From contig DUNT01000078.1 in NCBI GenBank assembly GCA_012839205.1, forward strand, positions 1 to 64,000: DNA of 64,000 nt, in the 5' to 3' direction. This document shows positions 3,081 through 57,221 of this stretch, piece by piece (position 1 is the first letter of the stretch; every line of letters starts with the position of its first letter). The translations under genes were made by a program, and so were the position numbers. The notes under the pieces were generated by a model. It ran no database searches. It was given only the letters and a program-made list of their open reading frames with translations, and was not told the origin of the DNA. Origin of the DNA: Clostridiaceae bacterium (lineage in GTDB: Bacteria > Bacillota > Clostridia > DSM-8532).

Positions 3081-3222
3081 TTTCTTATCCATTCTGTTAC
3101 CATAAGAAAGAAGAGTAAAAGTAACAGTGGATGCAGTATTTGCACCGCGAACCTTTTGGGCTCTTCGTTTAGAGACTCTACTCCCATTCTCTAACACTTA
3201 ACGCACAAATACCTGTTCTGTT
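3081..3222 (-). promoter_or_regulatory. THF riboswitch with translational expression platform
   Basis: Read on the minus strand, this leader matches the tetrahydrofolate aptamer: GCGTTAAGTG, then GAATGGGAG, ACGAAG, and GCGGTGCAAATACTGCATCC. A stem closes between GTATTTG and CAAATAC (plus-strand 3206-3212 with 3136-3142). Downstream, an 8-bp hairpin (3081-3088 with 3102-3109) ends right beside the AGGAG of folT. The loop of that hairpin holds GTAACAG, which is complementary to the CTGTTAC at the aptamer's 3' edge (3121-3127). Ligand binding could therefore free the loop, let the sequestering hairpin form and lower folT translation. The aptamer match is seen in the sequence. The switching model is inference. 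Confidence 0.85.
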
Positions 3223-35381: not shown

Positions 35382-36158
35382 CTATTTTTCTTGCTTATGC
35401 CATGTCAATGAAAATGTGTCATAAAAACTCTGACTTTGAAGCACCACATCCGGTGGCCCCACTTCAAGGACAGTATGATTCAGCAAGACAACCCTGTCTG
35501 CATATCGCTGAACCATATCAAGGTCATGGGATACTAAAATAATTGTAAGGTCGTAATCTTTTCTAAGAGCTGACACTGTTTCATAAAACAATTCCATTCC
35601 ATTTTGATCAATACCCGATACCGGCTCATCCAAAAGAAGCAAATCCGGGACAGGGTCCAATGCTAAAGCCAGAAGAACTCTTTGTAATTCTCCTCCCGAC
35701 AGAGCGCCAAGACGTCTGTCTATAAGATGTTGGGCTTTTACTACCGCCAGTCTTTCCTTTACCTTTTCCACTTCCTTTTTTCTTCGGATAAGCCATGCAG
35801 GAAAGTTAGACCTGCAGGAAAGAAATAAATCCAGAACACTTGTAGGGGATGTAGAATCCAGATTAAGGTTTTGCGGTACATACCCCATAACAGGTACTTG
35901 AAATGAACCCTTTTGAGCCTGAACATATTCCAGTGAACCGGTATGGGGTATATCACCCAGAAGCGCTTTTATAAGTGTGCTCTTCCCCGCTCCATTGGGA
36001 CCTATAATTGCAGTCAGCTCTCCACAATGAATATGAAGATTGATATCTTTAAGGATAACAGTGTTTCCCAAAGTCACACCAAACTTTTTTATTTTTGTAC
36101 AACACAACCCACAGCTTCGTTTTTGACAACTGTTTTCAGAAATATAAACATTCTTCAT
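35382..36158 (-). CDS. znuC: Zinc ABC transporter ATP-binding protein with cysteine-rich N terminus
   Basis: A 258-residue ATPase. Walker A is GPNGAGKST (about residues 54-62), the signature is LSGGELQRV and Walker B is LLLLDEPVSG. The H-loop is VSHD. An unusual leader, SENSCQKRSCGLCCTKIKKF, precedes the core with four cysteines in 11 residues. Typical ZnuC proteins begin near the KKFGVTLGN segment. The start overlaps the znuA stop by four bases (ATGA). The extra cysteines may bind metal, which is inference. Confidence 0.93.
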   Translation of the reverse strand: MKNVYISENSCQKRSCGLCCTKIKKFGVTLGNTVILKDINLHIHCGELTAIIGPNGAGKSTLIKALLGDIPHTGSLEYVQAQKGSFQVPVMGYVPQNLNLDSTSPTSVLDLFLSCRSNFPAWLIRRKKEVEKVKERLAVVKAQHLIDRRLGALSGGELQRVLLALALDPVPDLLLLDEPVSGIDQNGMELFYETVSALRKDYDLTIILVSHDLDMVQRYADRVVLLNHTVLEVGPPDVVLQSQSFYDTFSLTWHKQEK

Positions 36159-37054
36159 TTTAACGCCTCAATTAATACTTCTAAATTCTCTTTCATTATT
36201 CTTTCATAGCTATCTGACTCTGCGTCCTTAGGACCTGTAACCACCGGATCAAGAATATAAATCTTTGCTCCCGTCTGGGCAGCAATTGATTCTGCTGCCT
36301 TAGGCGAGTACTGGGGTTCTGTAAAAAGCACCTTGACCTGAGCTTCATTTATAGCTTTTATAGTTTCGGCCAATTCACCAGCACTTGGTTCTGAACCAGG
36401 CTCTCTCTCGATCACTGAAACAATATTCAGATCAAATTCATGGGCAAAGTATGGAAAAGCCTCGTGGAATGTAACTATATCTCTGGTTTCGATATCTTTT
36501 AAAGCATCATGCATACTTTGTTTAAGAGCCTCGAGTTTTTTTATATAATTCTCACTGTTTTTTCTATAAAAGGTCTCATTTGCCGGATCAGCTGCTATAA
36601 GGCCATCTGTAATATTTCTTACCTCTTGAATTGCTCCGCTGATACTAACCCATACATGCGGGTTCTTCTCTCCGTTCTCATCATCCAGAAGTTCCATACC
36701 CTTTGCTGCTTCGATTATGGTAAGCTCAGGGAGCTGACTAATTACTTTTTCCAGAAATGACTCCATTCCGGCTCCGTTAATAATAAAAATATCTGCTTTC
36801 TCCAGAATTTTCATATCTGCAGGAACCAACTGATAATCATGAAGACATCCTGTTTGAGGTTCAGTCATGTTGACTACTCTGACACCTTCAATACCATCTG
36901 CTATGTTACTTGTAAATATATACATCGGATAAAATGAGGTTACAATTAAAGTATCCTTATCCTGCTCAAAACCTATATTGCCGTCAGGCCCGCTACATGC
37001 TGAAAATACCAGAAATAGCATAAAAGTTAATATTAACAAACCAGTTTTTTTCAT
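36155..37054 (-). CDS. znuA: Zinc-binding lipoprotein of the ABC transporter
   Basis: A 299-residue metal-binding protein. Its signal peptide begins MKKTGLLILTFMLFLVF and ends in the lipobox SAC. Metal-ligand histidines appear in GCLHDYQLVPADM, NPHVWVS and TFHEAFPYFAHEF. There is no long histidine-rich loop. ATG 37054 follows AAAGGAG with a five-base gap. A longer version beginning at 37093 runs through a candidate Zur box and is rejected. It heads the operon znuA-znuC-znuB-zur. Confidence 0.9.
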   Translation of the reverse strand: MKKTGLLILTFMLFLVFSACSGPDGNIGFEQDKDTLIVTSFYPMYIFTSNIADGIEGVRVVNMTEPQTGCLHDYQLVPADMKILEKADIFIINGAGMESFLEKVISQLPELTIIEAAKGMELLDDENGEKNPHVWVSISGAIQEVRNITDGLIAADPANETFYRKNSENYIKKLEALKQSMHDALKDIETRDIVTFHEAFPYFAHEFDLNIVSVIEREPGSEPSAGELAETIKAINEAQVKVLFTEPQYSPKAAESIAAQTGAKIYILDPVVTGPKDAESDSYERIMKENLEVLIEALK

Positions 37055-37068
37055 AATAACTCCTTTGT

Positions 37069-37089
37069 AATTGGGAATGATTCGCATTT
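37069..37089 (-). promoter_or_regulatory. Candidate Zur operator upstream of znuA
   Basis: The 21-base minus-strand sequence AAATGCGAATCATTCCCAATT matches the B. subtilis-type Zur box (AAATCGT-AATNATT-ACGATTT) at 15 of the 20 defined positions, including the core AATCATT. It lies between the likely promoter and the znuA start. Binding by the adjacent Zur is inference. Confidence 0.6.
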
Positions 37090-37161: not shown

Positions 37162-37235
37162 TCTAATGATGGGTAGTGGCATTATTGCCCGAATACGAAT
37201 ACTATGTAATAGGAGCTTGTACAAAGGAGAATTCT

Positions 37236-37343
37236 ATGTTTTTCGGTATCTGGAACCGAAGGCGAAACAGGTGCTGTTGTAGATGTTGTTGCAGATGTTG
37301 TTGCTGTTGCAGATGTTGTTGCTGCTGCAGGTGTTGCTGCTAA
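37236..37343 (+). CDS. Poly-cysteine/arginine peptide (35 residues, 19 Cys)
   Basis: ATG 37236 lies six bases after AAAGGAG. The product begins MFFGIWNRRRNR and continues as blocks of three or five cysteines separated by single arginines (C3-R-C3-R-C5-R-C5-R-C3). It ends at TAA 37341. Nineteen of 35 residues are cysteine and eight are arginine. A promoter precedes it and a strong terminator follows at 37445. The gene diverges from the znuA zinc-uptake operon, so metal binding or metal-responsive expression is an attractive idea. I recognise no described family. The codon pattern TGT/TGC/AGA is repetitive, so repeat slippage may have shaped it. Confidence 0.65.
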   Translation: MFFGIWNRRRNRCCCRCCCRCCCCCRCCCCCRCCC

Positions 37344-37444: not shown

Positions 37445-37471
37445 AGGGCCTGGTATAAGGCCCTCTTTTTT
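37445..37471 (+). terminator. Terminator downstream of the poly-cysteine gene
   Basis: Stem AGGGCC (37445-37450) with GGCCCT (37459-37464), loop TGGTATAA, followed by six T. It lies about 100 bases beyond the stop codon. No second gene is evident between the two. Confidence 0.88.
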
Positions 37472-37588
37472 ATACAGAATTGCAGTTGGGAAATCAACCA
37501 GCCATTCTATGAAAACACCATGTGAAACCTTTAGCCAATGTCATGCGTGCCGCTCAGGAATTTCATCCGGAAATTATTCGCGACGCTC

Positions 37589-37612: not shown

Positions 37613-37696
37613 ATGATATCGGCAGCGGTTCCTCCCTACTTAAATTCATTTATCGTGGTGCGGGTAACGCGTGGGAACTCTGAGCCCCCCCATGTC

Positions 37697-37740
37697 ATTC
37701 TGAGCGTCAGCGAAGAATCTTATGCGGTGACATAAAGGGG
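37697..37740. repeat. Dispersed repeat, copy 4
   Basis: TGTCATTCTGAGCGTCAGCG, then AAGAATCTTATGCGGTGACA. It is the cleanest copy, and its start matches copy 1 with one change. Confidence 0.8.
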
Positions 37741-37805
37741 TCTGATGCGACCTCTGGAAGACACCCCAAGGCGGAACAAGGTATCTGTCCCCGTTCCCAT
37801 AAGCA

Positions 37806-37838: not shown

Positions 37839-38024
37839 TTACCAACGATTTCCGCCGCCGAAACTTCTATTACGATTGTTTCTTTCCATTTTTCTTGCCC
37901 TTCTGCAATCTGGGCATCTCTGGGGCTCGTTCTCAAATCCTTTTTCCTGATAGAAAGCCTGCTCTCCCTCAGTAAAAATAAATTCCGAGTTGCAATCTTT
38001 GCATGATAAAGTTTTGTCTGCCAT
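37839..38024 (-). CDS. Small zinc-ribbon protein
   Basis: A 61-residue protein with two CxxC pairs, SCKDCNSEF and RCPDCRRARK. This matches the probable-zinc-binding family of about 50-60 residues. A basic, glycine- and asparagine-rich tail (RNNRNRSFGGGNRW) suggests nucleic-acid contact. GGGAGG lies ahead of the ATG. It has its own promoter and terminator. The function of the family is not known to me. Confidence 0.85.
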   Translation of the reverse strand: MADKTLSCKDCNSEFIFTEGEQAFYQEKGFENEPQRCPDCRRARKMERNNRNRSFGGGNRW

Positions 38025-38224: not shown

Positions 38225-39031
38225 TCAGTTTGCTACTTTTTCACTGAGCCTTAATGTATCAGCAACTAATGCTATGAATTCAGAATTAGTGGGCTTTCCT
38301 TTGCGGGTATTAATGGTGTAACCAAATAAATCATTGATAGTGTCTACCTTCCCCCGGTTCCATGCAACTTCGATTGCGTGTCGTATAGCACGCTCAACTC
38401 TGCTGGGGGTTGTCTTGTGGTTCTTTGCAAGTTCAGGATATAGCCTTTTTGTTACCGCACTTATTATCTCACGATCTTTAACGGCCATTATAATGGCATC
38501 CCGCATATACTGATATCCCTTAATATGAGCAGGAACTCCAACATCTCTCATTATTTGAGTTATTCTTGTCTGAACATTGTCTCCCCCATAATTTGATTTT
38601 GACAGGCTGACAGGTTGAGCCGCCGGTTCCATCCTGATTACAGTCGGAACATGGGTTCTCACTAATTCTCTGATTCTTTCAACCAGTACACTTAAATCGA
38701 AAGGTTTTACTATATAATAAATTGCACCTAAGGAGAGAGCTTGCTGTGTGATTGCGTCCTGCCCTACTGCAGATAGGATAATAAATAAGGGCTTATCGGA
38801 TGCAGGGACATTCTTGTACTTCATTAAAACACCTAACCCGTCAAGCCTCGGCATAATAATATCAAGTACAACAATATCCGGCTTTGTTTTTTCAATCATT
38901 TCAATTGCATCCTCACCATTCTCAACCCTGGCTGTTACCTCAATGTCATTCTGACTCTCTAAATACTCTGTGATAATCATACCAAACGCATCATTATCAT
39001 CAGCTACAAGAACTCTTATTTTTTCATTCAC
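38225..39031 (-). CDS. spo0A: Stage 0 sporulation protein A
   Basis: A 268-residue master regulator of sporulation. The receiver has VADDND and the phosphoacceptor Asp 57 ([12 protein letters not shown]). The C-terminal effector domain has [16 protein letters not shown] and [21 protein letters not shown], plus the closing [19 protein letters not shown]. These are hallmarks of Spo0A. The start is GTG at 39031, seven bases after GGGAGG. The gene upstream is a class B PBP instead of spoIVB, which is the usual neighbour in Bacillus and many Clostridia. Confidence 0.97.
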
Positions 39032-55463: not shown

Positions 55464-55715
55464 AACGCCCTGTCATAGGACAAAGCGTCAGCCTGCGGTA
55501 CCACCTATGTTCATGTAAGCACTTAATTATGCCTTACATGCACTTGTGCGCTGTAACGGGCTTACCCGGCCATCCCTACTTTATTTTCAGGCGGCTGCTC
55601 CAGAGGGAAATTCAGCAAATTGCTTTCAAATTGGTGTTTCCAACCCATGACACCAACTCTCTGTTTGAAGAGGCAAAAGCTTACTTAATCTCTTTCATCA
55701 CATACTATGAATTAT
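55464..55715 (-). promoter_or_regulatory. T-box leader specific for tRNA(Phe)
   Basis: The minus-strand leader has the T-box sequence TGGTACCGC (plus-strand 55495-55503) and a terminator, ACGCTTTGTC with GACAGGGCGT and a run of T (55461-55488). An upstream stem I closes with CAGAGAG and CTCTG arms. The specifier codon reads TTC (plus-strand GAA 55607-55609), coding for phenylalanine. Uncharged tRNA(Phe) would stabilise the antiterminator and turn pheST on. Confidence 0.93.
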
Positions 55716-56775: not shown

Positions 56776-56816
56776 ATTCTTTGCTCCTTAAAACTCATAC
56801 ACTCTACAACAGAAAA

Positions 56817-57221
56817 AAATGAGCAGACCTGTAAGCCGGGTTCTGTCTTGAATGATCATCTATCTACGCCTTGTATTGCTACAAGGCTTTAGCCACCTCT
56901 AAGAAACAGGCGGGCAGCCTTATGGTTTCTTTTCACGGTGTTGCTCCAGGTGGGGTTTACATAGCGCCCTTCGTTGCCGTCGGGCCGGTGAGCTCTTACC
57001 TCACCTTTCCATCCTTACCATGCCAGGGGTTAGAGGCGGGAAACAAGATGCAAATATCACTGCTTCCAACATCTAACCTCTGGCATGGCGGTTTATTTCT
57101 GTTGCACTTTCCTTAAAGTCGCCTTCACCGGGTGTTATCCGGCACCTTTGCCCTGTGGAGCCCGGACTTTCCTCGTACGAGGCTTTTCAGCACATCGTCC
57201 GCGACCATCCGGCCTACTCAT
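56817..57221 (-). ncRNA. rnpB: RNase P RNA
   Basis: Catalytic RNA that trims tRNA 5' leaders. The minus strand shows the conserved 5' region ending in GAGGAAAGTCCGGGCTCC, then CAGGGCAAAGGTGCCGG. The core GGTAAGGATGGAAAGGTGAGGTAAGAGC and AACCCCACC are also present. The closing GACAGAACCCGGCTTACAGG completes it. A long P12-type stem (CATGCCAGAGGTTAGA arm) is present. Length is about 405 bases. The open frame that reads through it is an artefact. Confidence 0.97.

What the first reader, a model, noticed from the sequence alone, without database searches (positions are those of the whole stretch)
37236..37343. A 35-residue peptide of which 19 residues are cysteine, divergent from the zinc-uptake operon
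The sequence shows a clean small gene: AAAGGAG, ATG, a non-repetitive start (MFFGIWNRRRNR), then cysteine blocks 3-3-5-5-3 split by single arginines, TAA, and a terminator about 100 bases on. More than half the residues are cysteine, far beyond metallothioneins. The znuA-znuC-znuB-zur operon diverges from the same region and a Zur-like box lies before znuA. I know of no described family. A metal-buffering, redox or structural (spore coat) role is inference. The repeat may have grown by TGT/TGC slippage.
Basis: partly seen in the sequence, partly recalled or inferred. Interest (0 to 1): 0.88.

Follow-up and report, generated by a model that had tools for sequence, protein, structure and literature searches.

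The report
Half-cysteine mini-protein of spore-forming bacteria
A real, tiny bacterial gene makes a 35-residue peptide that is over half cysteine; eleven related spore-forming genomes keep a version of it in the same chromosomal spot, it fits no known family, and its most likely (unproven) job is to be cross-linked or to bind metal, probably when the cell makes a spore.

Summary
Window 37236-37343 (+) encodes MFFGIWNRRRNRCCCRCCCRCCCCCRCCCCCRCCC (19 Cys, 8 Arg), with a ribosome-binding site six bases upstream and a terminator 100 bases downstream. It is a gene, not a chance repeat. Eleven of the 14 same-genus genomes carry an intact Cys/Arg-rich ORF of 27-38 codons beside spo0A, a zinc-ribbon gene and/or znuA. 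In close pairs changes are mostly synonymous in the Cys/Arg frame and almost all nonsynonymous in the overlapping +1 frame. A 33-base leader (GAATAnTATGTA..GGAGCTTGTACAAAGGAG) is conserved. Pfam and NCBIfam have no match.

The zinc link is weak. The gene is inverted relative to its neighbours in six genomes and co-directional in five, with its own terminator, so it is not a cis leader for znu. The Zur-like box belongs to znuA only. The genus is spore-forming. Two distant look-alikes, in Anaerotignum and Hungatella, have perfect matches to the sigma-K promoter consensus; the window genus's own promoter cannot be assigned.

Best explanation (about 0.4): a late-sporulation, disulfide-cross-linked cationic spore-layer peptide. 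Main rival: a metallothionein-like metal or thiol buffer. Expression and function were not testable here.

The parts
37178..37183 (+). -35-like element GGCATT of the presumed peptide promoter
   Evidence: Aligned with GCACC/GTCAC/GACAT in orthologs, 16-17 nt before the conserved -10-like element; weak consensus match
37197..37229 (+). Conserved leader GAATACTATGTAATAGGAGCTTGTACAAAGGAG: -10-like element, GCTTGTAC core and ribosome-binding site
   Evidence: Conserved in all 10 orthologs aligned, more so than the coding part; also present in the 11th, G004; one copy of the GCTTGTAC..GGAG..ATG pattern in the genome
37236..37343 (+). Cys/Arg-rich small protein gene, 35 aa
   Evidence: Translation; 11 intact orthologs; synonymous bias in this frame, the only one with start and ribosome-binding site
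37445..37474 (+). Intrinsic terminator of the peptide transcript
   Evidence: Hairpin with 7 pairs and T-tail; a terminator-like hairpin follows at a similar distance in most orthologs
37839..38024 (-). Neighbour: 61-aa zinc-ribbon (zf_Tbcl) protein, syntenic marker
   Evidence: Pfam PF13451 E 5.7e-25; beside the peptide in several genus members
38225..39031 (-). Neighbour: spo0A, syntenic marker
   Evidence: TIGR02875 E 9e-108
36155..37054 (-). Neighbour: znuA, divergent here but co-directional with the peptide in other species
   Evidence: PF01297 E 2e-73; orientations
37076..37088 (.). Zur-like box of znuA
   Evidence: AATGATTCGCATT; like sequences precede znuA in co-directional genomes, beyond the peptide's terminator

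Best explanation
Shown: 37236-37343 is a stand-alone, single-copy, fast-evolving but selected gene for a 27-38-residue cationic peptide made mostly of Cys and Arg, with its own promoter-like leader and terminator, kept at one locus in a genus of spore formers. Inferred: it is made in the mother cell during sporulation, and its Cys runs oxidise into a dense disulfide network (or thiol-metal clusters) that locks it into the spore's outer protein layers, the arginines giving solubility and docking to acidic surfaces. Composition and length, not an exact sequence, would be what selection keeps, which would explain the tract-length changes.
For: Eleven intact orthologs among 14 genus genomes: 27-38 aa, rich in C and R, same locus. 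Synonymous/nonsynonymous codons in the Cys/Arg frame are 7/3, 7/4, 8/7 and 4/1, against 0/10, 0/9, 0/13 and 1/3 in the +1 frame; placing the same changes at random does as well with P from <5e-5 to 0.015 in those pairs. Codon-position differences for G000/G001 and G000/G011 are 0, 3, 9. The genus sporulates: SASP in 14/14, SpoIVA in 12/14, and spo0A is adjacent. Look-alikes outside the order have exact AC-N17-CATANNNTA promoters: Anaerotignum sp. MB30-C6 and Hungatella hathewayi, shuffle P 0.0125 and 0.0025, plus close relatives of the Hungatella gene in two IMG/VR contigs with the same promoter region. The sigma-K consensus is KCACM / GCATANNNTA (PMC3416734). Diverse Cys-rich proteins self-assemble by disulfides in spore layers of Clostridia and Bacilli (PMC7333573).
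Against: In the window's own genus the -10-like element (GAATAnTATGTA) matches sigma-K no better than shuffled sequence, except marginally in one genome, and does not clearly match the SpoIVA or SASP promoters of the genus either. No expression data. Known spore Cys-rich proteins are, from own knowledge, much larger and lower in cysteine. Homology of the Anaerotignum and Hungatella genes to this family is not shown; they may be convergent. spo0A adjacency alone is weak evidence.
Confidence: 0.4

Rival explanations
1. Metallothionein-like buffer: the cytosolic peptide binds Zn(II), Cu(I) or another soft metal in thiolate clusters, storing or detoxifying it, perhaps tuned with the neighbouring Zur regulon.
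For: Cysteine content suits soft-metal clusters; it lies beside znuABC-zur and a zinc-ribbon gene; bacterial metallothioneins SmtA and MymT are small Cys-rich proteins (PMC7558416).
Against: No Zur-like box at the peptide promoter; orientation to znuA is not conserved and a terminator separates them where co-directional; the Anaerotignum look-alike is not near znu; no His and no fixed CxC/CxxC spacing; contiguous CCCCC runs are unlike known metallothioneins (own knowledge).
Confidence: 0.27
2. Arg-driven function: a protamine-like nucleic-acid condensing peptide, or a cationic membrane-active (antimicrobial or type I toxin-like) peptide, with Cys as cross-links.
For: Some orthologs are more Arg than Cys (G010 12 R/7 C, G012 11 R/8 C) and most carry eight or more Arg with hardly any acidic residue.
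Against: The window's own version is Cys-dominated; no signal peptide is apparent (by eye), and no export, immunity or antitoxin gene was found beside it; no PDB match for the most Arg-rich one tried.
Confidence: 0.15
3. Cysteine-responsive leader peptide (attenuator): ribosomes stall on Cys codons and thereby control a downstream gene, as the polycysteine leaders of mycobacteria do.
For: Short ORF with Cys-codon runs followed by a hairpin; the device exists in mycobacteria (Canestrari et al. 2020, doi 10.1111/mmi.14498, known here only through citing papers).
Against: Next genes downstream (zf_Tbcl, spo0A) are on the opposite strand here; the unit is inverted in six of eleven genomes; Arg codons are kept as well as Cys codons; individual folds share no common structure by inspection; no Rfam leader match at this place.
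Confidence: 0.04
4. Not a protein gene: a TGY microsatellite with an accidental ORF, or an ORF in another frame or strand.
For: Low complexity; the +1 frame is automatically open in TGY/AGR tracts; one antisense frame (poly-Gln) shares the same third positions and also shows synonymous excess.
Against: Start and ribosome-binding site fit the Cys/Arg frame in all 11; the +1 frame takes nearly all nonsynonymous changes; by inspection the antisense Gln frame has no start codon before the tract in G000 and G001.
Confidence: 0.05

Closest known systems
Cysteine-rich spore-layer proteins of Clostridia and Bacilli (CsxA, CdeC, ExsY/CotY)
   Same: Cys-rich products of spore formers; proposed disulfide cross-linking, as argued in PMC7333573
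   Different: Those are much larger proteins with ordinary complexity and modest Cys content (own knowledge for sizes); no sequence family shared; spore localisation not shown here
Bacterial metallothioneins (SmtA, MymT)
   Same: Very small, Cys-rich, presumably cytosolic; MymT is a 4.9-kDa small ORF product (PMC7558416)
   Different: 54% Cys in contiguous runs, 23% Arg, no His, no spaced CxC/CxxC pattern; no Pfam match
Polycysteine leader peptides of mycobacteria (Canestrari et al. 2020)
   Same: Short ORF with consecutive Cys codons and a hairpin after it
   Different: Own Shine-Dalgarno (those are leaderless), no downstream co-directional gene here, inverted in six of eleven genomes, many Arg
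Hungatella hathewayi MCCCRCCC... protein (L132) and Anaerotignum MMCRQRSNCRRCCCC... peptide (L052)
   Same: Same CCCR-type tract, strong ribosome-binding site; exact sigma-K-like promoters
   Different: Different genomic places; Hungatella's has a C-terminal region after the tract; common descent with the window gene not shown
Protamines
   Same: Short Arg- and Cys-rich peptides with drifting sequence (resemblance from memory)
   Different: Eukaryotic sperm proteins, Arg-dominated; the window peptide is Cys-dominated

Membership tests
Metallothionein (Pfam/NCBIfam families) | Match to a curated family model | tested here: not met
   No Pfam or NCBIfam hit for the peptide or its orthologs at E up to 1 to 10; low-complexity bias weakens the test
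Metallothionein (Pfam/NCBIfam families) | Thiolate metal binding | not testable with these tools
   Needs purified peptide under anaerobic conditions
Metallothionein (Pfam/NCBIfam families) | Regulation by a metal sensor | tested here: inconclusive
   No Zur-like box at the peptide promoter; the box is beside znuA; other metal sensors not tested
Cys-codon attenuator / leader peptide | Regulated gene downstream on the same strand | tested here: not met
   Downstream genes are on the opposite strand here; inverted in six of eleven genomes, terminator in between in the rest
Spore-layer cysteine-rich protein | Organism forms spores | tested here: met
   Gene content only: SASP in 14/14 and SpoIVA in 12/14 genus genomes, spo0A adjacent
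Spore-layer cysteine-rich protein | Mother-cell (sigma-E/K) promoter | tested here: inconclusive
   Perfect sigma-K match in two distant look-alikes, degenerate in the window genus
Spore-layer cysteine-rich protein | Presence in spore coat or exosporium | not testable with these tools
   No proteomic data
Mycobacterial polycysteine attenuators | Leaderless translation start | tested here: not met
   Conserved GGAG site 6-8 bases before ATG in the aligned orthologs

The most novel reading that the evidence does not exclude
A previously undescribed class of bacterial micro-proteins in which selection keeps mainly amino-acid composition (Cys and Arg, up to about three quarters of all residues), recurring in spore-forming Clostridia under late-sporulation promoters: protamine-like, disulfide-polymerising peptides used to harden or pack the spore.
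Probability: 0.25. Interest if true: 0.82.

Novelty: new variant of a known kind. Interest (0 to 1): 0.6.

Why it matters
If translated, it would be among the most cysteine-rich natural proteins (not surveyed here), and genes this short and repetitive may be missed by annotation and by profile searches: the family profile built here returned no match even in the window's own genome. It would test whether an anaerobe spends that much cysteine on spore armour, on metal storage or on something else, and how a protein can be selected for composition while its order and length drift. The conserved leader gives a practical handle for finding relatives that the protein sequence cannot give.

Tried and rejected
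Cis attenuator: rejected on orientation, terminator and lack of a downstream gene. Shadow-frame artefact (Ala/Val/Asp-rich +1 frame, or antisense poly-Gln/poly-Thr frames): rejected by substitution pattern and start sites. Upstream extension of the ORF (conserved ...GACTKE...): rejected because the leader is out of frame or stopped in several orthologs. RNA element: individual folds show no shared structure by eye, no Rfam hit at the locus. Profile search of 300 genomes of the phylum with the 12-peptide alignment found nothing, not even the source genome, so it is uninformative. CCCRCCC-type pattern search of 391 genomes of the class: mostly other frames and TGY repeats, one further C/R ORF (L218, other family); that pattern was typed with YGN instead of MGN, so Arg AGR codons were not sampled. 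Leader-pattern search with ATGTGY over the class gave only genus members as true hits. Promoter comparison with SpoIVA and SASP of the genus gave no clear match. No structure prediction was run: a 35-residue poly-Cys peptide would not give a usable model.

Full report
Observation. The site AAAGGAG is six bases before the ATG. A hairpin with a T-tail lies at 37445-37464. Flanks: znuA, an ABC ATPase, an ABC-3 permease and a Fur-family gene on the minus strand to the left; a 61-aa zinc-ribbon gene and spo0A, also minus strand, to the right.

Is it a gene? The CCCRCCC pattern occurs nowhere else in the 2.3-Mb genome. Searching genus members by pattern, by ZnuA and by Spo0A and reading the interval gave ten more ORFs: MFFGIFNRRRNRCCFRCFCRCCCCCRCCCCCRCCC, MFFGSWSRRRRRCCCRCCCRCCCCCRCCCVCCCRCCW, MCFRNRRRLNIFCGRRCRRCCCCCCCCCCCCCRCCCRF, MCIRNRRRLFCGRRCRRCCCCRCRCCRF, MCIRNRWRLNCRRCRRCCCCCFICCCCRRCCCCCRCIC, MSCNYWSRSGPADRNRRCCCCRRRSRSFCRRRRCFGFF, MCCLNFCRCRCIFCRRCCCKRRFRRRFGCC, MFFFGRRRCCCRRCCCCCCCCCCCCCFRRSRWQ, MCCFRFCRRRRRCCCRKRRVNRCCRAY and MCFFKFCCCRCCCCCIRCPRRRRRDCGRF. 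All frames are intact. Of the three genomes without one, G008 ends its contigs at the locus and G005 gave no spo0A or znuA hit, so they cannot be judged; G002 seems to lack it (its spo0A contig runs 4.8 kb on without it, its znuA contig ends close upstream).

Which frame? TGY/AGR tracts leave the +1 frame open automatically, and that shadow frame reads as a plausible Ala/Val/Asp protein, so it had to be tested. Among the close trios the Cys/Arg frame has 7/3, 7/4, 8/7 and 4/1 synonymous/nonsynonymous codons, the +1 frame 0/10, 0/9, 0/13 and 1/3. Randomly placed changes rarely do as well: P below 5e-5, 0.015, 0.004 and 0.005 for those pairs, 0.03 and 0.32 for the two pairs with G004. The pairs are not independent. 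One antisense (poly-Gln) frame shares the same third positions and so also looks synonymous; by inspection of G000 and G001 it has no start codon.

Leader and autonomy. The stretch GAATAnTATGTA-n-AGGAGCTTGTAC-AAGGAG is the best conserved part. Terminator-like hairpins follow the gene. The peptide is inverted relative to its neighbours in six genomes (G000, G001, G004, G006, G007, G011) and co-directional with them in five (G003, G009, G010, G012, G013); for G004 and G013, whose contigs lack znuA beside it, this rests on the zinc-ribbon or spo0A side. So the unit was turned as a whole and is kept in either direction, which argues for a trans-acting product and against a leader peptide for znu. 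Where co-directional, the Zur-like box follows the peptide's terminator and precedes znuA. In the window the box is at 37076-37088 beside znuA, with no like sequence near the peptide promoter.

Relatives. Pfam and NCBIfam give nothing. A scan of GTDB contigs for ribosome-binding site, ATG and CCCRCCC gave, besides chance hits, Anaerotignum sp. MB30-C6 MMCRQRSNCRRCCCCRCCCCCRCCCRWYR and Hungatella hathewayi MCCCRCCCRCCCRCCCRCCGNSNS... of 100 aa. IMG/VR holds two contigs with a close relative of the Hungatella protein with a shorter tract. The Anaerotignum and Hungatella upstream regions carry AC-N17-CATANNNTA exactly (the two IMG/VR copies have a like region by inspection); the consensus for sigma-K is KCACM / GCATANNNTA (PMC3416734). 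The same pattern, with 16-18 spacing, occurs about 0.0024 times per 50 bases in other Clostridia loci. In the window genus the best alignments mostly fall at one place with nearly the same spacing but are no better than shuffles in most genomes. Descent from a common ancestor with the window gene is not shown. Another family of the class has MSIFRRRCCCCCCCCRRRCRRRRR... with a ribosome-binding site and a hairpin after it.

Mechanism. All genus members have SASP genes and 12 of 14 show SpoIVA. With the sigma-K-type promoters of the look-alikes and the established use of diverse Cys-rich proteins as disulfide-linked spore layers (PMC7333573), I favour a spore-layer cross-linking peptide at 0.4. 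Metal or thiol buffering (0.27) is next; the zinc neighbourhood is its main support and that support is weak. Arg-based functions (0.15), non-gene (0.05) and attenuation (0.04) follow. Steps shown: gene, frame, conservation, autonomy. Steps inferred: expression time, location, chemistry.

Limits. Profile methods fail on this composition: the 12-peptide profile did not find even the source genome. No expression or protein data exist here.

Noticed in passing
L132 (Hungatella hathewayi DSM 13479, - strand, ORF from about 3737 of the reverse complement); L314, L315 (IMG/VR contigs): Protein with an N-terminal CCCR repeat tract of variable length and a conserved C-terminal part (NERRWAYREGFNDGY.VGFEDGRWNRRPCPRSN), preceded by a sigma-K-like promoter; no confident Pfam match, looks like an undescribed spore-protein type.
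   Followed up: partly
L218 (G379:C236): Another Cys/Arg-rich small ORF, MSIFRRRCCCCCCCCRRRCRRRRR followed by three TT(G/S)RFSD repeats, with ribosome-binding site and hairpin, in a different family of the class.
   Followed up: partly
window 37839-38024 and genus loci: A zinc-ribbon (zf_Tbcl, PF13451) gene sits beside spo0A and the Cys-rich gene in several genus members.
   Followed up: no
window 37685-37790: Sequence CATGTCATTCTGAGCGTCAGCGAAGAATCTTATG between peptide and zinc-ribbon gene resembles a dispersed intergenic repeat; not checked for copies.
   Followed up: no
upstream of spoIVA in 12 genus genomes (L241-L252): Strikingly conserved block CCAATATACTTATATTGACCGAATGGGTCATGCA..TGCATGTACCGA..ATACTGAAGGGGGATTGGC, longer than a promoter; possible leader element.
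   Followed up: no
window 3123-3222, 55473-55707, 56816-57220: THF riboswitch, T-box leader and RNase P RNA, all above Rfam gathering scores.
   Followed up: no
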